A stretch of DNA of 41,728 nt from Planctomycetales bacterium (GTDB lineage: Bacteria; Planctomycetota; Planctomycetia; Isosphaerales; Isosphaeraceae), in the NCBI GenBank assembly GCA_027451885.1, contig DAIDHX010000138.1, positions 1 through 41,728 on the forward strand, given 5' to 3'. This document shows, piece after piece, positions 10,559 to 19,732 of this stretch (position 1 is its first letter; each line of letters begins with the position of its first letter). The position numbers and the translations under genes were made by a program. The notes under the pieces are model-generated. The model saw nothing but the letters and a program-made list of their open reading frames with translations. It was not told where the DNA came from and did no database searches.

Positions 10559-10575
10559 TGCGTGGGAGGGTGATT

Positions 10576-10824
10576 ATGAAATCCGTCGGCTCATTCGAGG
10601 CCAAGACTCATCTGCCCCAGCTCCTGGAACGGGTAGCCCAGGGCGAAGAATTCACCATCACCAGGCACGGCAAGCCCGTCGCCCGCCTGGTGCCCGTCTC
10701 GCCCGCCCGCCCCAGGCCCGACATCCAGCAGCTTATTAGCGACATGCGTGCCTTCCGTAAAGGAAACACGCTAGGCGAGGATCTCAGCATCCGCGACCTG
10801 ATCGAAGAAGGGCGCCGCTACTAA
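10576..10824 (+). CDS. Phd/YefM-family antitoxin
   Basis: An 82-aa protein opening MKSVGSFEAKTHLPQLLERV and continuing GEEFTITRHGKPVARLVP, the classic N-terminal Phd/YefM DNA-binding and dimerisation domain. The C-terminal half (DMRAFRKGNTLGEDLSIRDLIEEGRRY) would be the toxin-neutralising segment. The ATG is preceded by GGGAGGG. The frame stays open upstream to 10447, but the Phd domain and the ribosome binding site fix the start at 10576. A PIN-domain toxin gene begins 22 bp after the stop, the usual antitoxin-toxin order. That toxin is broken, so the antitoxin may now be an orphan. Confidence 0.88.
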   Translation: MKSVGSFEAKTHLPQLLERVAQGEEFTITRHGKPVARLVPVSPARPRPDIQQLISDMRAFRKGNTLGEDLSIRDLIEEGRRY

Positions 10825-10846
10825 CCGCCGCCGAAAGGATTTGCCG

Positions 10847-11227
10847 ATGCTGGAGGCCAAGGATGGTTTCGTACTCGACTGCTCCGTCACCATGTCCTGG
10901 TGCTTCGAGGATGAAACGGATGCTTACGCCGACAGCGTGCAAGACGCCCTTACGTCGGTGCGGGCGGTGGTGCCGACCATCTGGCCGCTCGAAGTTGCCA
11001 ACGCACTGATCGTCGGCGAGCGCCGCAAGCGGCTGGACGAGGCCCGCAGCACCCGCTTCTTCGCCATGCTCAGCGGGCTTCCCATCGTCGTCGATGACGA
11101 GACCGCCGGCCGGGGGAGGCAGAAGAAGACACCCAGGGGAGGCAGAAGAAGACACCCAGGAACAAGAGAGAGGCAGAAGAAGAGGCAGAAGAAGACACCC
11201 AGGAACAGGAGTCACGACGCCTGCTGA
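10847..11227 (+). pseudogene. VapC-like PIN-domain toxin, 3' part replaced by repeats
   Basis: The first 88 or so residues are a PIN domain: FVLDCSVTMSWCFEDE with the first acidic residue D11, then PTIWPLEVANALIVGERR with E49. From about base 11111 the frame enters low-complexity repeat DNA and encodes an Arg/Lys-rich tail (RQKKTPR repeated) in place of the rest of the domain. The conserved Asp residues expected near residues 95-115 are missing, so the RNase centre of VapC-type toxins cannot form. ATG 10847 is used, with AAGGA at 10834-10838; a TTG lies two codons upstream. I read this as a toxin inactivated by insertion or replacement. Confidence 0.8.
11113..11213 (-). repeat. short-sequence repeat cluster A (GACACCCAGG units)
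   Basis: AGGCAGAAGAAGACACCCAG or close variants recur three times across 11117-11204, with additional AGGCAGAAGA pieces. Read on the minus strand this is CTGGGTGTCTTCTTCTGCCT, the same core (GGGTGTCTTNTTCTG) as cluster B on the plus strand. The cluster starts where the PIN domain breaks off. Confidence 0.75.
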
Positions 11228-11302
11228 GGATCAGCGCGCGATCGAACTCGCGAGGAATCGTTGAGCGCTCGGCCTGACCCGCGAAGAATGGGCATGACAC
11301 AC

Positions 11303-11515
11303 GGAAAATGGGTGTCTTGTTCTGGCTTCCCCGGAAAATGGGTGTCTTGTTCTGGCTTTGTTCTGGCTTCCCGCGTTCTGGCTTCCCGGAAAATGGGTGT
11401 CTTGTTCTGGCTTCCCTTTGTTCTGGCTTCCCTGTTCTGGCTTCCCGGAAAATGGGTGTCTTGTTCTGGCTTTGTTCTGGCTTCTTCGGAAAATGGGTGT
11501 CTTGTTCTGGCTTCC
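11303..11515 (+). repeat. short-sequence repeat cluster B (GGAAAATGGGTGTCTTGTTC units)
   Basis: Five copies start at 11303, 11333, 11388, 11447 and 11488, each GGAAAATGGGTGTCTTGTTC followed by TGGCTT. Extra TTCTGGCTTCCC half-units lie between them. Unit spacing is irregular (30, 55, 59 and 41 bp), and the spacers are made of the same repeat pieces, so it is not a CRISPR array. Together with cluster A it forms an inverted pair around 11214-11302. All three frames are open across it, giving meaningless open frames. Confidence 0.85.
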
Positions 11516-11539
11516 GGTCAGCTACGCGATGAGGAGCCT

Positions 11540-12310
11540 GTGAAGGACTATTTCCGGAAAGCGCAAGCTGCTGCACCTGTGCTGCGTTGGCTCGTCAATC
11601 TCCAGGCGAACCCAAATCCTGTAAATCCAACCGAGCCTGAGCCTACCCAGATCGATTCGGCTACGGCTGCTATCATCGAGCGTCTTGAAGGCGTGCTCGA
11701 ACAACTTGGAACAACTCATGATCGTAGGTTCGACACTGAAGAACGAGAAATCCTGACTGCCTTATTACAACCCGCCGACGGAAAAGCGTTCGAAGCTGGA
11801 CAAGTTCGGTTGGGCAACCTATTGGGTTACGAGGCCGATAACTCGCACTCCGACGCCGCCCCGGACCCGTGGTGGATCGCCGACGACATGATCTTTGTGT
11901 TCGAGGACCACTCCGAGGCCGAGGAAGCCACCGTTCTTTCGCCCACCAAGGCCCGACAAGCCGCATCTCACCCCAACTGGGTTCGGGAAAACCTGAAACC
12001 GCCACTAACAGCCGAGATCATCCCAGTCCTAATCACTCCCTGTACGACAACCACCAGGGGAGCGATTCCGAGTCTGAGGGGGGTACGCTACTGGTCTCTC
12101 GATGATTTCCGCTCGTGGGTAACCGACGCTGTGCGTGCCATACGCGATATCCGCCGAACTTTTCCGGGAGTCGGAGACTTGGAATGGAAGACACAGGCAG
12201 CCGCACGGTTGAGAGAGGCCAACATCACCCCGCAACAGTTGAACACGATGCTCTCCAAGTCTTGCGCGGATGCCATGCGAGTGCTCAATGTGGATGAGGA
12301 GGTGACATAG
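11540..12310 (+). CDS. PD-(D/E)XK-like protein co-transcribed with the SIR2-Argonaute
   Basis: A 256-aa protein of no family I can name. The N-terminal third is helical (LRWLVNLQAN, then AAIIERLEGVLEQLG). The middle reads GNLLGYEADNS, PDPWWIADDMIFVFEDHSEAEE and KARQAASHPNWVREN, which resembles a restriction-endonuclease-like core: an Asp before a Trp pair, then a hydrophobic strand ending in E-x-H where E-x-K is usual. This fold assignment is an inference, and the Lys is replaced. GTG 11540 is chosen because GAGGAG lies just upstream. The frame stays open back to 11261 through repeat cluster B, so the true 5' end may have been lost. Its stop (TAG, 12308-12310) shares one base with the next start, implying translational coupling to the Argonaute gene. 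Confidence 0.7.
   Translation: MKDYFRKAQAAAPVLRWLVNLQANPNPVNPTEPEPTQIDSATAAIIERLEGVLEQLGTTHDRRFDTEEREILTALLQPADGKAFEAGQVRLGNLLGYEADNSHSDAAPDPWWIADDMIFVFEDHSEAEEATVLSPTKARQAASHPNWVRENLKPPLTAEIIPVLITPCTTTTRGAIPSLRGVRYWSLDDFRSWVTDAVRAIRDIRRTFPGVGDLEWKTQAAARLREANITPQQLNTMLSKSCADAMRVLNVDEEVT
12296..12304 (+). promoter_or_regulatory. ribosome binding site deciding the SIR2-Ago GTG start
   Basis: GAGGAGGTG lies five bases before GTG 12310, inside the end of the upstream gene. It supports GTG 12310 over the internal ATG at 12367, which would remove the first 19 residues but leave the SIR2 glycine motif. Confidence 0.7.
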
Positions 12311-15300
12311 TGCCTCCAGAAAACCTGCCCCTCGATGCCTTCGTCCGCGCGATCGGTGCCAACCGGATGACCCCCCACGCCCTTTTCTTAGGGGCGGGTG
12401 CGTCTGTTTCGTCTGGCATGCCATCAGCACAAATGTGCATTTGGGAATGGAAGCGATCTATCTTTCTCACCAATAACGTCGGTTTGGAATCCCAGTTTTC
12501 TGAAATCACCCTTGCAAGTGTACAGGCGAGGATTCAGCGCTGGCTTGACCGGCAGGGGCTTTACCCACAAGCTGGCGACGCGAACGAATACAGCGTCTTC
12601 ATCGAGGCTTGCTATCCTATACCGGCGAGCCGTAGGCTCTATTTTCAGGAAAAGGTCAGACAGGCCAGGCCGCATCTCGGCTACCAGATGGTAGGAGAAC
12701 TTGCGACACAAGGACTGATCCGTTCCGTCTGGACCACCAATTTCGATCAGTTAACAAGCCGTGCCCTCGCCGGACAAACGATATCCCCGATCGAGGTTGG
12801 GATCGACTCAGCGCATCGCGCGGTCCGCGCCGCTCATTCGGGCGAGTTACTGATCGTTTCGCTGCACGGCGACTACCGCTACGACGCTCTAAAGAACACC
12901 ACGACCGAACTACAAAAGCAACAAGAGGAACTTGAGAGAGCACTCATTAGTGCACTCGAAAATACTCCTGCGATTGTCTGCGGCTACAGCGGACGCGATA
13001 CATCGGTCATGAATGCGTTTAAGGACGCCTACGGCCGAACGGGTCCCGGAACTCTTTACTGGTGCGTGCAAGACGCCGACAACATCGCACCCGCGGTTAG
13101 AAGCCTTATCCGCCATGCGCGGTCTCACGGACGAACGGCATATCTGGTTCCGATCCAGGGCTTTGATGATCTCATGGTCCGACTGGCGCTCCACTGCCTC
13201 GATCAGCCTGCTCAAGAACGGGTAACTCAGCTTATCGCTCAGAACGCAGGCGCGACCGGCCCTAGTCGTAGTCCTTTCCGAATCGAAAACGACCATCCCG
13301 TAGCGATTCTGAAAAGCAATGCTTTCGAGATCGAGTGCCCCTCGGAAGCCATCGCCTTTGAACCGAAGTCCTGGCCGGATTCCGGTGTTTGGCGCTGGGT
13401 GCGCGACCAGACAAGAGGGAAGGATGTCGTTGCCGTCCCCTTCAAAGGCCAGATTTTCGCCCTGGGGGCAGTTGACGAGATCCAGGCGTGCTTTGGAACC
13501 AACATCAAAGACCGTCCACAACGCACTCCTTTATTCGCCGGAAACCTCCGTCAGCACGACGGAGCGATCACCTCACTGCTTCGCGAGGCACTAATTCGAA
13601 GTATGGCTCACGCGACCGGCGTAGAATCCGACGGATCGCGTGAATTGTGGCTAAGCAACTCCGTTAGGCAGGAGAGGCTGGACGGCGAAACTTACTCAGT
13701 CTTTAACTCCGTCCATCTGACCTTGCGTCAAGTCGATACGCGCACGTTCCTGATTATGAAACCTTCCCTGAAGGTGCTGACGTGCTCGGGCGAAGCCGCG
13801 CCCCGCGAGGCGGCGAACGTTCTTAAGTTTCGCATCCTCGGTTACCAACACAACAAGGAGTTCAACGACGCTGTAAACGAATGGCGTCAACTCCTGTTTC
13901 CAACCGATGCAGCCCAGAAACCGTACGACTACCCGCCTTCGTGTGCCTCCGCATTCCGATTCCTGATCCGCAGAGCACCCGTTTTTGCCGAAATTTGCGG
14001 TCAAAGGAACATTCCCGCCATTACAGTGCAACCACGCTTCCGACCGTTGCTCAAGCAACGTGGAATAGAAATCAGCGAACCCGGCCTCTTGTTCTCTAAC
14101 CAGTCCGGTTCGTCAACGACCCGTGACCCGCATCCTGTGCGGGGCATCCTCAACAACCGGCCCTTCGATTATCCGCTGACCCGCTTTCAAGTTAGCTCCG
14201 AGATTCGCCTCGGAGTCGTCTGTCCGAAGGCCGAAACAAAGCACCTGCAATCCTACCTTCAGAATGCCGTTAGCCAGATTCGGCCCGGCAAGGGGGAGTC
14301 CGATTACCTTCCCACGTTCCCTGGGTTTAGGAAGGCATTCGGTGTTGATTTGATCCCCCCCGATCCAGGGACAAACGGTTGGGCAGTCTGCCCCGAAGCG
14401 ACCGGCACTGACGACCGAGCTAATGCCCTGGAGGTTGCAAGAAACATCAACCGTTGCATCGACATGCTCCAAGCCTCCTACTCGCCGCATGTCGTCCTTA
14501 TCTTTTTCCCAGCGCGCTGGTCACAGTTTCGCGGATTTGTTTCGGACACGGAGCGCTTCGACGTACACGACTTCGTCAAGGCGAGCAGCGTCCAACGCGG
14601 CATCGGCACGCAGTTTTTGGACCAGAGCACATTGTCCGATTCAATGCAATGCCGTGTGTGGTGGTGGCTCTCCCTAGCGTTCTACGTGAAAGCTATGCGC
14701 ACTCCCTGGGTGCTTGATGGTCTAGACCGCGACAGCGCGTTCGTGGGCCTGGGCATGAGTGTCGATAATACACGGGAACGCGGGCAGCATGTCGTGATGG
14801 GATGCAGCCATATTTATAGCTCCCGAGGCGAAGGGCTCCAGTACAGGCTGAGCCACGTTGAGAATCCAGTATTCTTTGGTAAGAACCCGTTTCTTTCTCG
14901 GGATGACGCACGACGAATTGGCGAGCAGATCCGGGAGTTGTTCTTCGAGTCGCGATCTGCCTTGCCCAATCGCGTCGTCATTCACAAAAGAACTCACTTC
15001 ACGAGGGACGAACAAAATGGGCTCCGCGACGGGCTGAGTGGCGTGCCTCACGTTGAGATGCTTGAAGTGGTTGTGGAGGACACGCTGCGATATATCGCTT
15101 CAAGTGTCGATGCAAAAGGAAATCTTCACGAGGACAATTACCCTGTGCGGCGGGGTAGCGTCGTGCGGCTGGACGATTATTCTGCGCTTATGTGGGTACA
15201 CGGGGTAACTTCAGCCATCAGCAGCGGGCGACGCTACTATCAGGGCAAGCGCCGCATCCCGGCCCCGCTACTGATACGACGGCATTGTGGGGATTCCGAT

Positions 15301-15471
15301 CTGCGCGAGCTCGCCGAAGAGATTCTCGGATTGTCTAAGATGAACTGGAACACATTCGACCTCTATACCAAGTTGCCCGCCACAGTCCAATCTTCCAACG
15401 AGATCGCTAGGATTGGGTCCCTTCTTCAACCGTTTCACCCGCGAGCGTACGACTTCCGATTGTTTATTTGA
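12310..15471 (+). CDS. SIR2-APAZ-MID-PIWI fusion, short-Argonaute type defence protein
   Basis: A 1053-aa single-chain protein. SIR2 domain (about 1-300): FLGAGAS (28-32), WTTNFD (N144), SLHGD (H186) and CGYSGRD (D230), the NAD-binding and catalytic positions of bacterial SIR2 NADases. APAZ-like region (about 300-610) ends with EPGLLF (590-595) and an RDPHPVRGILNNRPFD signature. MID: HDFVKA (H753, K757), GTQFL (Q768) and FYVKAM (K794), the guide 5'-phosphate pocket. PIWI: FVGLGMSV (G815 where active enzymes have Asp), IHKRTHF (H892), then LSKMNWNTF and SSNEIARIG near the end. The PIWI catalytic residues are therefore lost, as in short Argonautes. Related fused SIR2-Ago proteins sense invading DNA through a guide and deplete NAD to abort infection. 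The gene overlaps its upstream neighbour by one base and has a strong ribosome binding site. Its third codon positions look less GC-rich by eye than the flanking chromosome, suggesting transfer. Confidence 0.93.
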   Translation: MPPENLPLDAFVRAIGANRMTPHALFLGAGASVSSGMPSAQMCIWEWKRSIFLTNNVGLESQFSEITLASVQARIQRWLDRQGLYPQAGDANEYSVFIEACYPIPASRRLYFQEKVRQARPHLGYQMVGELATQGLIRSVWTTNFDQLTSRALAGQTISPIEVGIDSAHRAVRAAHSGELLIVSLHGDYRYDALKNTTTELQKQQEELERALISALENTPAIVCGYSGRDTSVMNAFKDAYGRTGPGTLYWCVQDADNIAPAVRSLIRHARSHGRTAYLVPIQGFDDLMVRLALHCLDQPAQERVTQLIAQNAGATGPSRSPFRIENDHPVAILKSNAFEIECPSEAIAFEPKSWPDSGVWRWVRDQTRGKDVVAVPFKGQIFALGAVDEIQACFGTNIKDRPQRTPLFAGNLRQHDGAITSLLREALIRSMAHATGVESDGSRELWLSNSVRQERLDGETYSVFNSVHLTLRQVDTRTFLIMKPSLKVLTCSGEAAPREAANVLKFRILGYQHNKEFNDAVNEWRQLLFPTDAAQKPYDYPPSCASAFRFLIRRAPVFAEICGQRNIPAITVQPRFRPLLKQRGIEISEPGLLFSNQSGSSTTRDPHPVRGILNNRPFDYPLTRFQVSSEIRLGVVCPKAETKHLQSYLQNAVSQIRPGKGESDYLPTFPGFRKAFGVDLIPPDPGTNGWAVCPEATGTDDRANALEVARNINRCIDMLQASYSPHVVLIFFPARWSQFRGFVSDTERFDVHDFVKASSVQRGIGTQFLDQSTLSDSMQCRVWWWLSLAFYVKAMRTPWVLDGLDRDSAFVGLGMSVDNTRERGQHVVMGCSHIYSSRGEGLQYRLSHVENPVFFGKNPFLSRDDARRIGEQIRELFFESRSALPNRVVIHKRTHFTRDEQNGLRDGLSGVPHVEMLEVVVEDTLRYIASSVDAKGNLHEDNYPVRRGSVVRLDDYSALMWVHGVTSAISSGRRYYQGKRRIPAPLLIRRHCGDSDLRELAEEILGLSKMNWNTFDLYTKLPATVQSSNEIARIGSLLQPFHPRAYDFRLFI

Positions 15472-16132: not shown

Positions 16133-16616
16133 CTGTCCACTACTGGCTCTACGACCACTGATTCGGCATTTGGGTACTTCTTCAGGACCTTCAATCGATC
16201 TTGGCCCCGAATCACGCCGCCGTAAGGAACTTGCGGCCGAGAAGCTCATCGTCGAAGACCTCGTCGCAGAAGGATTCCCTCGTGAGTTCACTCAGCGCGT
16301 CGCCCTCGAAAAGCTGCTCGGATTCGACTACCGGGCGTGGCGTGTCGCCGATCCTCGGTTTGGGCTCATCGAAGTCCGCCGTATCGAGGTTAAGGGCTAC
16401 CCCTCCGGAAACTCGATCCAACTCGATCACAGCGAGTGGATCAAGGCCCCAGACACGAGGCGCCAGCTATTGGCTTTACGTCGTTTGGGACCTGGTTGGA
16501 TCCTCGCCCCGACTTGTTAAAATTCAGAAACGTTCCAACGCCTTTTACACCCAGTGAAAGCCCGCGAAGGTGTCCGCCGATACGAGATCCCGGCTCAAGC
16601 GATTAAGGCGATAGCG
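16125..16616 (+). pseudogene. DUF3883-like domain remnant with two compensating frameshifts
   Basis: The first segment reads ELAAEKLIVEDLVAEGF, then LLGFDYRAW and RRIEVKGYPSGNSIQLDHSEW. Homology then moves to another frame (ASYWLYVVWDLVGSSPRLVK, from about 16459) and returns to the first frame at FQRLLHPVKAREGVRRYEIP (about 16530). Joined, this is a DUF3883 pattern (GYD...IEVKG...EW..A...YWLYVV...YEI), a nuclease-like domain usually found at the C terminus of helicases or other defence proteins. One extra base near 16458 and one missing base near 16524 explain the shifts. Nothing of an N-terminal partner domain remains, so it is a truncated, broken gene. Confidence 0.72.
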
Positions 16617-16700
16617 AGGACCTGGGGACCTGATGTCCCGGCGACGGCGCATTTAAGCATAAATACCAACTCCGGCCCGACTTGGAGCACGAGCAGATTC

Positions 16701-17234
16701 ATGCTGACCGAGCAAAACATCGAGGCTGAACTCAGCTATGCCTACCTGCATGCCGTGGCATCGAGCGCGGGGTTTTCGTGCGAATATCGTAATCGTCACC
16801 TGGACGGGGCTGGGGTTGATGCGACGATCACGGAAGACGGACGCAAGCTGGCCGATGACTCGGTTTTGACTTCGTTTTCAATTGATATTCAAATAAAAGC
16901 AACCTACCGCGACCTGAGCGAGAGTGAAGGCCGCTACTCTTACCCTTTGGCCGTTCCGCACTACGATAAGCTGCGGCTTGAAGAGGTCGCTTCCCCGCGG
17001 TTGCTTCTCGTCCTGAGGCTACCGCGAGATCCCGCGCAGTGGCTTCAAGTCACCCACGAAACCCTCGTCGCCAGGCGATGCGTTCACTGGGTCAGCCTTC
17101 GGGGTGCGCCCGCGACAGAGAACAAGACGAATCAGACCGTGTATGTCCCCGACCAAAACCTCCTAACGCCCGTGGGGCTAACGGACCTCATGACGCGTTT
17201 CTCGCGGCTGGAGGTAATTCCCTATGCGGCATGA
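16701..17234 (+). CDS. DUF4365-like nuclease-fold protein
   Basis: A 177-aa protein matching the DUF4365 plan: an N-terminal helix with E10, AGFSCEYRNRHLDGAGVDATI with D40, then SIDIQIKAT with Q64-x-K66 (the QxK variant of a PD-(D/E)XK core). YSYPLAVPHYDKL, PRLLLVLRLP, HWVSLRG and a TVYVPDQNLLTP tail follow. DUF4365 domains are found in defence-associated genes, and their substrates are mostly unknown. ATG 16701 fits the family start. The same frame is open upstream into the DUF3883 remnant, so read-through is possible. The gene overlaps the next by 11 bp, which indicates coupled translation. Confidence 0.82.
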   Translation: MLTEQNIEAELSYAYLHAVASSAGFSCEYRNRHLDGAGVDATITEDGRKLADDSVLTSFSIDIQIKATYRDLSESEGRYSYPLAVPHYDKLRLEEVASPRLLLVLRLPRDPAQWLQVTHETLVARRCVHWVSLRGAPATENKTNQTVYVPDQNLLTPVGLTDLMTRFSRLEVIPYAA

Positions 17235-18399
17235 CCTCGACCAACTGCCAGACTCCTTGACCCGCCTCGTCACCCCCCGCGCGGTTCGCGTATATGCGGA
17301 AGGCATGGGTTGGCGACGCGTGGAGGGCGTCAACGGGAAAATCGCGGTTTATCAAAACCCCAATGCCCCCCTTCGCCAGTTGATCGTTCCACAGGATGAG
17401 CGGCTCGACGATTATGGCCTTCGCACCGCAGAGGCGATCGAACGTCTCGCCGAGTTTGAGCAACGACCAGCGAAGGAGATTCTTAACCATCTCCTGTTGC
17501 CTCCGGCGGACATCCTTTGCTTCCGCGAGTTCAGCCCGGACGCGGAGGCGGGAAACCTCTCACTCGATCATGCTGTCCGCATGATCGATGGGACCAGAAA
17601 GGCCCTCCTCTCCGGAGCTCACAGCGTTCTTTCACCGCGAAAGTATCATCCACGAATGTCTCGGAGCGAGGCGGAGGACTTCATTTCACGATGCCGCCTC
17701 GGCCAGACACAACGCGGGAGCTTCGTCTTAACGGTCGCCTGCCCGCTTGACCTCGGAGCGGATTTGCTCGGGCCGGCTGGTGAGCCTTTCTCTCGCCGCG
17801 TGACCAGATCGCTCATGCAATCGCTCACCGACCTCTCCCACGCAGCCGAGCGGATGCAAATCGACGATCTCGAGGACCAGACGCGCCATCCAGGGATCAG
17901 TGCGAACCTTTGTGAATCCCTCCTACTCCTCCGACCGACGGGCGAGCGAGCTTTCCTGAATATCTCAGCCTCATGGTCGCGTGCCCTTGCACCAACTGAA
18001 GGCGGATGGCGGCGAGAAGTTCAGTTGACGCAGGAGGTTTTCGAGGTTGCCGAAGGACTCGCGCCAAGATTGCGATCGGCACCCAGACCAAAGGTCGATC
18101 GCTTCTTCGGCTTCGTTGACGAACTTCGCGGTCAGTCCTCTGTCGGGTCCAGAAAGCCTTCCGGTGAAGTTCGCTTCGTCTTGTTCGATGAAGGAGAGGA
18201 ACTCCGCGCGAAAGCTGACCTTAACGCGGATGATTACGCCTTGGCCGGCTCAGCTCATTTGAGCAGTGAAATTGTCAGCTTCCGAGGGGTCCTGGCACGG
18301 CTTCCGAGGTTGAATCGGATCGACAGTGTGGCCGATTTCCAGATCGTCGAACTGGATGATGAACTCCCGGCTATCGGTAATGAAGCAGAGCAGGCGTAA
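17224..18399 (+). CDS. 391-aa protein of unknown family, partner of the DUF4365 protein
   Basis: I do not recognise this family. The N-terminal part reads RAVRVYAEGMGWRRV, then LIVPQDERLDDYGLRTAEA and RLAEFEQRPAKEILNHLL. The middle (about 95-260) is mixed, with RGSFVLTVACPLDLG and HAAERMQIDDL. The C-terminal part looks beta-rich (RFFGFVDELRG, GEVRFVLFDEGEEL, VSFRGVLARLPRLNRIDSV). There is no signal peptide or membrane segment, so it is probably cytoplasmic. Its start lies within the end of the DUF4365 gene, and no other intact gene shares the operon, so the two products likely act together. The IS630 element begins within about 80 bp downstream. Confidence 0.78.
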   Translation: MRHDLDQLPDSLTRLVTPRAVRVYAEGMGWRRVEGVNGKIAVYQNPNAPLRQLIVPQDERLDDYGLRTAEAIERLAEFEQRPAKEILNHLLLPPADILCFREFSPDAEAGNLSLDHAVRMIDGTRKALLSGAHSVLSPRKYHPRMSRSEAEDFISRCRLGQTQRGSFVLTVACPLDLGADLLGPAGEPFSRRVTRSLMQSLTDLSHAAERMQIDDLEDQTRHPGISANLCESLLLLRPTGERAFLNISASWSRALAPTEGGWRREVQLTQEVFEVAEGLAPRLRSAPRPKVDRFFGFVDELRGQSSVGSRKPSGEVRFVLFDEGEELRAKADLNADDYALAGSAHLSSEIVSFRGVLARLPRLNRIDSVADFQIVELDDELPAIGNEAEQA

Positions 18400-18447: not shown

Positions 18448-19530
18448 CGGACATATTGGCTGGCTGTAACGTATACTGTCCATGAGCACCACTGATGCCC
18501 GAAAGTTGTCGCCCGCCGCGCTCGAGGATCTTCGCCATCGCGTTGTGCGGGCTGTTGTCGAACAGGGGCTTAAGGTCGCGGAGGCGGCCAGAACCCTCGG
18601 CGTCGGTCGCACGGCGCTGCACAGTTGGCTGAAGGCGCACCGCCAGGGTGGCGAGGCGGCGCTGAGGCTCAAGAAACGGGGCCGCAAGCCCGAGCCGCGG
18701 CTGAAGGGGCACCAGGCCGCCACGATCGTGCGTCTGATGACCGATCGCTGTCCCGACCAGTTGAAACTTCCATTCGCGCTCTGGACTCGTGAGGCGGTGG
18801 GGGAGTTGATCGAGCAGCGGTGTGGCCTGCGACTCTCGGTGTGAACGGTTGGCCGGCTGTTCAAGCGATGGGGTTTCACGCCGCAAAAGCCTGTGCGGCG
18901 GGCCTACGAACGCGACCCTGTCGCCGTGAAGCGGTGGCTCGACCAGACGTATCCCGCGATCAGGCGCGAGGCCAGGCTCGAGAAGGCCGAGATCCACTGG
19001 GGAGACGAGATGGGCCTGCGATCGGACCATCAAACCGGCACGAGCGACGGCCGTCGCGGGCAGACTCCGGCGGTGCCCGGAACCGGCCAGCGGTTCGGCT
19101 GCAACATGATCTCGACGGTCACGGGACGAGGCCGGCTGGCGTTCCTGGTTTTCAGCGAGCGATTCACTGCGGAGGTGTTCCTGAAGTTTCTCGGGCGTCT
19201 GGTTCGGCAGAGCCCTCGCAAGGTCTACCTGATCGTCGACGGCCACCCGGTGCATCGATCGAAAAAGGTTGCGAGCTGGGTCAAACGCCACGAGGATGCC
19301 ATCCGTCTTTTTCAATTGCCTGGGTACAGCCCGGATCTCAACCCGGACGAGTTGCTCAACAACGACGTGAAATCGAACGCCGTGGGCAGGCGACGACCGA
19401 AGGATCGCCCTGAGATAATCTCGCAAGTTCGCGGATACCTGCGCTCGACCCAGCGACGCCCTGATATCGTCTGGAATTACCTCAGGCATCCGAAGGCCGC
19501 GTACGCCGCAATGTCAGGGTGTTCGATGGG
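18448..19530 (+). mobile_element. IS630-family insertion sequence, decayed
   Basis: The limits are approximate. The transposase frame covers most of the element. Weak terminal similarity is visible between GACATATTGGCTGGC (left, from 18449) and the reverse complement of the right side around 19500-19515 (GACATTGCGGC). I could not define clean inverted repeats or a TA duplication. Confidence 0.6.
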
Positions 19531-19732
19531 TGACGGGCCGGGTGATACGCCCGTTGCGTGCACGATCCCCCCTTGCCACCGCGGTCAAAAACGACAGAAT
19601 AAAGAGATTGCCGTCGGCTTGATCCCGCTCCCTCTTCGCGGAGATTGCGATGTCGCGCACGCCGATCCTGCTTGCGATTGCATTGCTCGGATTGATTCCC
19701 CAACCCGCCTATTGCTGGCAAGACCCGTTTGA
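18482..19732 (+). pseudogene. IS630-family transposase with in-frame TGA and lost stop
   Basis: The N-terminal 120 residues carry the helix-turn-helix (VAEAARTLGVGRTALHSWLK) and a GRKPEPRLKG linker. A TGA at 18842-18844 then interrupts a frame that continues as TVGRLFKRWGFTPQKPVRRAYERD. In relatives this position is Trp (TGG), so it is a single-base nonsense change. The downstream part holds the DDE core: HWGDEMGL, IVDGHPVH and SPDLNPDELLNND. The usual end (RHPKAAYAA) is at about 19510, but no stop follows. The frame runs on for about 75 codons into the start of msrB, so the native terminus is also lost. Both defects point to an inactive copy. Confidence 0.85.

What the first reader, a model, noticed from the sequence alone, without database searches (positions are those of the whole stretch)
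11540..15471. Two-gene operon: SIR2-APAZ-PIWI fusion preceded by a PD-(D/E)XK-like gene
The sequence shows a single-chain SIR2-APAZ-MID-PIWI protein whose start shares one base with the stop of a 256-aa upstream gene (TAGTG), with a strong ribosome binding site inside that gene. Fused SIR2-Ago proteins are known to deplete NAD as a one-component system. An upstream nuclease-fold-like partner is not part of those systems as I know them. The partner could process guides or targets, add a second effector, or regulate the NADase. This is the best candidate for an undescribed system here.
Basis: partly seen in the sequence, partly recalled or inferred. Interest (0 to 1): 0.9.

Follow-up and report, generated by a model that had tools for sequence, protein, structure and literature searches.

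The report
Truncated Hna helicase-nuclease beside SIR2-Argonaute
A bacterial immune protein that should destroy the cell's NAD when it recognises foreign DNA sits behind the broken-off tail of a second known immune gene (the Hna helicase-nuclease); in close relatives from three bacterial phyla both genes are whole and overlap, a pairing I found no published description of.

Summary
An intact fused SIR2-APAZ-MID-PIWI gene (12310-15471) starts on the last base of the stop codon of a 256-aa ORF, with a Shine-Dalgarno site inside that ORF. It is the C-terminal PD-(D/E)XK (NUC) domain of an Hna-family helicase-nuclease. About 620 N-terminal residues, including both helicase domains, are missing and are not elsewhere in the genome. 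The homology starts at the exact base where a dispersed repeat element (11113-11515) ends; the element's other edge truncates a vapC toxin gene. In the four nearest relatives of the Argonaute with readable upstream DNA (two Planctomycetota, one Acidobacteriota, one Alphaproteobacteria) a full-length 863-873-aa Hna homologue directly precedes it, with stop and start codons overlapping. These four and the window form one clade (100/100 support). More distant SIR2-Agos lack the partner, and most Hna relatives I read are solo. So the real find is a two-gene Hna-SIR2-Ago operon, a new pairing of two known single-effector systems, of which this window holds an eroded copy. In this Hna branch the catalytic lysine (Hna K729) is histidine.

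The parts
11113..11515 (.). Dispersed repeat element: left arm of 3 inverted copies (GGGGAGGCAGAAGAAGACACCCA), a core, and right arm of 5 copies of TGGGTGTCTTGTTCTGGCTTCC; it separates two truncated genes
   Evidence: copies in the window; copies elsewhere in the genome, none in 44 other genomes of the family; core 84-91% alike at several other loci
11516..12310 (+). Truncated Hna-like helicase-nuclease gene: C-terminal NUC (PD-(D/E)XK) domain only; homology to intact relatives starts at 11516, possible GTG start at 11540, stop TAG 12308-12310
   Evidence: PDC-S28 positions 613-824 of 831; N-terminal part absent from own genome; fold = Hna residues 645-844, Z 19.9
11861..11911 (+). Nuclease active-site motif P108-D109 ... 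E122-D123-H124; H124 aligns with Hna K729
   Evidence: K729A abolishes Hna nuclease activity (PMC13381803)
12296..12302 (+). Shine-Dalgarno site GAGGAGG for the Argonaute gene, inside the upstream ORF; similar GGAGG-type sites in all four relatives
   Evidence: sequence; relatives' junctions
12310..15471 (+). Fused SIR2-APAZ-MID-PIWI gene: SIR2 about 1-310, APAZ about 320-578, MID-PIWI 579-1053; NADase dyad N144 and H186 kept

Best explanation
The locus is an eroded copy of a two-gene immune operon: an Hna-family helicase-nuclease followed by a single-chain SPARSA (SIR2-APAZ-pAgo). In the window the Hna-like gene has lost about 620 N-terminal residues at a dispersed repeat element, leaving only its nuclease-fold C-terminal domain; the SIR2-Ago gene is intact. 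Most likely working (inferred from the named families): the Argonaute half uses a guide to recognise invader DNA and switches on the SIR2 half, which consumes NAD and stops the infected cell. In intact relatives the Hna-like protein binds or moves on single-stranded DNA of the same invader and either supplies or exposes targets for the Argonaute or acts as a second trigger. Its nuclease is probably weak or altered, because the catalytic lysine is histidine. In the window the helicase function is gone, and the SIR2-Ago probably acts alone. The tail ORF stays open perhaps because the Argonaute's ribosome-binding site and start overlap it. Shown here: domain identities, truncation, the operon in relatives, kept catalytic residues. 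Inferred: guide use, NAD depletion, cooperation of the two proteins, translational coupling. The confidence given is for the identity and truncation; cooperation of the two proteins in intact copies is rated separately in the section on the most novel reading and the rivals.
For: Identity of the tail: PADLOC PDC-S28 at positions 613-824 of 831; 55-59% identical to the C-termini of 863-873-aa proteins encoded directly upstream of the four nearest SIR2-Agos; those proteins match PDC-S28 over nearly full length and match the solved Hna helicase by sequence (E 1e-36); the tail's predicted fold matches Hna residues 645-844 at Z 19.9, 2.8 A over 196 residues. Truncation: homology starts on the first base after the repeat block; residues 1-603 of the relative's Hna-like protein find no credible match anywhere in the 98%-complete assembly; the element's other edge cuts a vapC gene after codon 91, where an 82% identical homologue continues. 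Operon: stop and start codons overlap in all five copies; the five Argonautes form one clade with 100/100 support although the hosts belong to three phyla. Argonaute half: SIR2 N144 and H186 invariant, equivalent to the GsSir2 dyad N142 and H186 needed for NADase activity (PMC10781750).
Against: No experiment shows that the two proteins work together. Most Hna relatives I read are solo genes, and SIR2-Agos outside this clade do without one, so each may work alone and the operon may be simple co-transfer of two defence genes. The tail ORF in the window is open and keeps its motif, so a function of the bare NUC domain is not excluded; its protein-changing divergence relative to the Argonaute is only slightly higher than in relatives (mean ratio about 1.47 against 1.28, synonymous sites saturated). 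Only one of five structure models of the tail was confident. An assembly error at the repeat cannot be fully excluded without reads.
Confidence: 0.85

Rival explanations
1. The 256-aa ORF is a functional, streamlined partner: the stand-alone NUC domain is made from GTG 11540 and acts with the SIR2-Ago as a DNA-binding or nuclease subunit.
For: The ORF is open, keeps PD...EDH and much of the domain's conserved residues, folds as a complete PD-(D/E)XK domain with flanking helices, has an AGGAG at 11532-11536 before GTG 11540 and ends in the operon-type overlap with the Argonaute.
Against: No other free-standing copy was seen in the relatives; the homology breaks exactly at a repeat edge; the neighbouring vapC is broken by the same element; the AGGAG-GTG spacing is only 3 nt; divergence of the tail is slightly raised.
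Confidence: 0.1
2. In intact copies, two independent defence genes that happen to be neighbours: Hna-like and SIR2-Ago each work alone, and the operon only ensures joint transfer and expression.
For: Hna is described as a single-effector system (PMC13381803); solo Hna relatives are common on plasmids; the window itself lies among other defence-like genes (PDC-M02A and PDC-M02B at 16554-18399).
Against: Overlapping stop and start codons, fixed gene order and one clade in three phyla go beyond ordinary neighbourhood in a defence island.
Confidence: 0.45
3. Assembly artefact: the genome has an intact Hna-like gene and the assembler joined it wrongly at the repeat.
For: The break lies at a repeat with relatives elsewhere in a 316-contig draft assembly.
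Against: The exact 24-mer of the right arm occurs only in this contig; other copies differ by at least one base. The missing N-terminal part is in no other contig of a 98%-complete assembly.
Confidence: 0.07

Closest known systems
Hna (helicase-nuclease abortive infection), Sinorhizobium meliloti, PDB 9yhn, 9ykj and 10uj; PADLOC candidate PDC-S28
   Same: The tail has the fold and position of the Hna NUC domain (Z 19.9); the relatives' full proteins have the same order of SF2 helicase and PD-(D/E)XK domains, the Walker A, DDAH, SAT and QxxGRxxR motifs, and a length of ~870 aa.
   Different: In the window both helicase domains are missing; the catalytic lysine K729 is histidine (PD...EDH); the relatives are in an operon with a SIR2-Ago instead of solo; identity to S. 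meliloti Hna is low (about 25%).
SPARSA and fused SIR2-APAZ-pAgo (short pAgo group with SIR2-APAZ; relatives in Paraburkholderia)
   Same: Domain order SIR2-APAZ-MID-PIWI in one chain, NADase dyad N and H, and a predicted fold matching the SPARSA complex (Z 40.5 for the Ago part, 30.7 for SIR2-APAZ).
   Different: SPARSA of Geobacter is two proteins; fused forms outside this clade have no Hna-type gene in front. Here, and in the four nearest relatives, an Hna-type gene overlaps the start of the Argonaute gene.
SPARDA (short pAgo with DUF4365-APAZ nuclease) and other Ago-nuclease pairs
   Same: A PD-(D/E)XK-type nuclease domain is encoded next to a short Argonaute that is presumably catalytically dead.
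   Different: There the nuclease is fused to APAZ and is the effector. Here APAZ is fused to SIR2 and the Argonaute, and the nuclease domain belongs to a helicase without APAZ.
SIR2-HerA (two-gene SIR2 plus DNA translocase systems; from general knowledge, not tested)
   Same: The idea of a SIR2 NADase and a DNA motor in one operon.
   Different: HerA is an FtsK/HerA-type translocase, not an Hna-type SF2 helicase, and there is no Argonaute.

Membership tests
Fused SIR2-APAZ-pAgo (single-chain SPARSA) | SIR2, APAZ, MID and PIWI in one polypeptide | tested here: met
   PADLOC PDLC02384 over its full length at 1300 bits; SIR2_2; model aligned to SPARSA Ago (579-1053) and SIR2-APAZ (6-560) chains
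Fused SIR2-APAZ-pAgo (single-chain SPARSA) | NADase dyad Asn and His (GsSir2 N142 and H186) | tested here: met
   N144 and H186 invariant in alignments of 27 and 33 relatives; role from PMC10781750
Fused SIR2-APAZ-pAgo (single-chain SPARSA) | Catalytically inactive PIWI (no DEDX tetrad) | tested here: inconclusive
   The segment FVGLGMS with invariant G813 and G815 stands where an active PIWI would be expected to have its first aspartate; no residue-by-residue comparison with an active PIWI was made
Fused SIR2-APAZ-pAgo (single-chain SPARSA) | Guide-dependent NAD depletion and abortive infection | not testable with these tools
   needs biochemistry or phage and plasmid challenge
Hna | N-terminal SF2 helicase domains HEL1 and HEL2 | tested here: not met
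   absent in the window and in the rest of the assembly; present in L016-L019
Hna | C-terminal PD-(D/E)XK NUC domain | tested here: met
   Foldseek E 2.5e-9 and VIA Z 19.9 to Hna 9yhn residues 645-844; [quoted passage not shown]
Hna | Catalytic nuclease lysine K729 | tested here: not met
   histidine in the window and in all four Ago-linked relatives, also in solo relatives L070, L072, L073, L080 and L081; tyrosine in pKAZ2
Hna | Single-gene system | tested here: not met
   overlapping operon with SIR2-Ago in five of five members of this clade
SPARDA | Nuclease fused to APAZ, encoded beside a short pAgo | tested here: not met
   no DUF4365 or Aga (APAZ-type) model matches the 256-aa ORF or the full relatives; the APAZ region lies in the Argonaute chain

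The most novel reading that the evidence does not exclude
Hna-like helicase-nuclease and single-chain SIR2-APAZ-Ago form one cooperating two-component immune system, in which a DNA motor with an altered nuclease site works on or exposes single-stranded invader DNA for a guide-directed NADase; the window holds a natural deletion mutant of it.
Probability: 0.42. Interest if true: 0.72.

Novelty: new variant of a known kind. Interest (0 to 1): 0.5.

Why it matters
Fused SIR2-Agos and Hna are both treated as one-gene abortive-infection systems. A clade in three phyla that binds them in an overlapping operon suggests that a DNA motor can be part of Argonaute immunity. That bears on an open question: how short Argonautes find accessible DNA and get their guides and targets. 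The lysine-to-histidine change in a branch of Hna asks whether that branch still cuts DNA. The window itself warns against reading a truncated neighbour as a new partner gene.

Tried and rejected
The 256-aa ORF as an unrelated gene tail: rejected, since its homologues are encoded next to the nearest SIR2-Agos. The ORF as a DUF4365 or APAZ nuclease: rejected by Pfam and PADLOC; the weak DUF7185 hit (E 0.04) was ignored. A sequence search of the PDB with the tail gave nothing useful; only fold comparison and the full-length relatives gave the identity. Viral collections: no close operon; two viral contigs hold solo Hna relatives with FEDH (L080, L081), without a SIR2-Ago in the DNA held. Plasmid collection: 230 records with an Hna relative, all under 60% identity, and none of the neighbourhoods read holds a SIR2-Ago. 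Genome sets: in the window's phylum, seven of 392 genomes (the window's included) encode this SIR2-Ago family and seven an Hna relative; apart from the window no genome is in both lists. In the orders of L016 and L019 and in the phylum of L018 no further intact operon was found. L040 (Herminiimonas) has a canonical (ECK) Hna divergently oriented 285 bp from a 42% identical SIR2-Ago: taken as a defence-island neighbour, not as the same operon. A test for decay of the tail by substitution rates was not decisive. The tree of the tails was too weakly supported to test co-inheritance beyond window plus L016 (90/90). Promoter and terminator scans gave no more than chance.
Full report
What is in the window. 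They share base 12310 (TAGTG), and GAGGAGG at 12296-12302 precedes the second start by 7 nt.

The Argonaute gene. The 1053-aa protein matches the PADLOC pAgo model PDLC02384 over its whole length with 1300 bits, Pfam SIR2_2 and both chains of the Geobacter SPARSA complex in the PDB. An AlphaFold model (mean pLDDT 85.8) aligns with the SPARSA Argonaute from residue 579 on (Z 40.5, 444 residues) and with SIR2-APAZ over 6-560 (Z 30.7). N144 and H186 are invariant among 27-33 relatives and correspond to N142 and H186 of GsSir2, both needed for NADase activity (PMC10781750). H753, K757, Q768 and K794, which look like the MID pocket residues, are invariant too; that reading is from general knowledge. 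The gene is intact and, by family knowledge, a guide-dependent NADase.

The upstream ORF. PADLOC's PDC-S28 profile matches it only at positions 613-824 of 831, so a truncated protein was suspected. A scan of 84,980 genomes with the Argonaute gave 37 loci. In the four nearest with readable upstream sequence (L016 Pirellulaceae 73%, L017 Planctomycetota 69%, L018 Acidobacteria 65%, L019 Acidiphilium 66%) the gene directly upstream encodes 863-873 aa, and its last ~250 residues are 55-59% identical to the window ORF. These proteins carry DEAD, ResIII and Helicase_C_2 domains and match PDC-S28 over nearly full length. Their best PDB match by sequence is the 845-aa chain of 10uj, 9yhn and 9ykj (E 1e-36); 9yhn and 9ykj are titled Hna monomer and Hna dimer. 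S. meliloti Hna itself is in the set (L078). Hna is described as a single-effector abortive-infection protein: two SF2 helicase domains, a C-terminal PD-(D/E)XK domain, 3'-5' single-strand exonuclease, held off by ATP-dependent dimerisation and triggered by a phage SSB (PMC13381803).

Fold of the remnant. The window's 256 aa modelled with five homologues (best model pLDDT 80.6, the other four poor; [quoted passage not shown] Foldseek's top PDB hit is the Hna monomer (E 2.5e-9); VIA-align gives Z 19.9, 2.8 A over 196 residues, to Hna residues 645-844, then FokI and BspD6I-type nucleases at Z about 10.

Why it is a remnant. The alignment with the four relatives starts at GQL (11516), the first base after a repeat block that ends at 11515. 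The frame is open upstream only because it runs through the repeats. A search of the window's own assembly with the full relative finds the tail, one chance-level hit (E 0.24), and nothing else. The block (11113-11515) has a left arm of inverted copies, a core and a right arm; similar elements lie at several other places in the genome and none was found in 44 other genomes of the family. Its left edge cuts a vapC-like gene after codon 91; a homologue 82% identical over that part continues for about 55 more residues. Two genes broken at the two edges of one element point to a deletion or insertion event. Reads were not available, so an assembly error is unlikely but not excluded.

The operon in relatives. 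In all five copies the Hna-type stop overlaps the Argonaute start: by 1 nt (window, L016, L019), 4 nt (L018) or 8 nt (L017), with a GGAGG-type site in the 3' end of the upstream gene. A tree of 33 Argonautes puts the five together with 100/100 support; the next row, L020, has a uracil-DNA glycosylase gene upstream instead (by eye). A profile search of the neighbourhoods of all these loci found Hna-type genes only in the clade and, divergently placed and with a canonical ECK site, in L040. Additional relatives found in the order of L016 (36-47% identical) carry no Hna. The simplest reading is that the pairing arose once and spread, or was kept, across three phyla.

The other side of the comparison. 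Hna-type genes are common as solo genes: 230 plasmids hold a relative, and the neighbourhoods I read have no SIR2-Ago. In S. meliloti Hna the active site is GPD...ECK, and K729A removes nuclease activity. In the window and its four Ago-linked relatives it is APD...EDH. Several solo relatives share the histidine (L070 Nostoc, L072 E. coli plasmid, L073, and viral contigs L080 and L081) and pKAZ2 has tyrosine, so the change belongs to a branch of the family and not to the Argonaute linkage. Whether such a site cuts DNA is unknown.

How it most likely works. Shown: domains, kept NADase residues, the truncation, and the operon in relatives. Inferred: guide-directed recognition of invader DNA activates NAD consumption (from SPARSA). 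In intact copies the Hna-type motor acts on single-stranded DNA of the same invader and either presents targets to the Argonaute or provides a second trigger; an alternative of nearly equal weight is that the two genes act independently and only travel together. In the window the motor is lost. The tail may persist because the Argonaute's ribosome-binding site lies in it. Substitution data do not decide: tail-to-Argonaute ratios of non-synonymous change average 1.47 for pairs with the window and 1.28 for other pairs, with synonymous sites saturated.

Novelty. Helicases and PD-(D/E)XK proteins have been noted statistically in pAgo operons (PMC6299218), without this pairing being named in the text I could read; the supplement was out of reach. 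No paper in the held library joins Hna and Argonaute as one system; many subscription papers, including the original Hna paper, are not held. I rate the intact operon as a new variant of a known kind, and the window itself as a degraded copy.

Noticed in passing
window 11113-11515: Short dispersed repeat element with opposed arms and a core, in several copies in this genome but none found in 44 other genomes of the family; it seems to be linked with gene breakage on both sides.
   Followed up: partly
window 10570-11227: Phd/YefM antitoxin gene followed by a vapC-like toxin gene cut after codon 91 by the repeat element.
   Followed up: partly
window 16554-18399: Two-gene pair matching PADLOC candidates PDC-M02A (DUF4365) and PDC-M02B: another candidate defence system just downstream.
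   Followed up: no
L047 8001-8348, L048 8001-8345, L050 1734-2021, L052 8001-8186: Only the last 60-116 residues of a SIR2-Ago remain in unrelated genomes, as if the gene had been deleted repeatedly up to its 3' end.
   Followed up: partly
L070, L071, L072, L073, L080, L081: A branch of Hna-like proteins, mostly on plasmids or viral contigs, has H (or Y) instead of the catalytic K729.
   Followed up: partly
L040 5221-7713 (-) and 8001-11102 (+): A canonical Hna (ECK) lies divergently next to a more distant SIR2-Ago in Herminiimonas.
   Followed up: partly
window 18482-19732: Transposase ORFs resembling IS630 (by eye only), overlapping in two frames.
   Followed up: no
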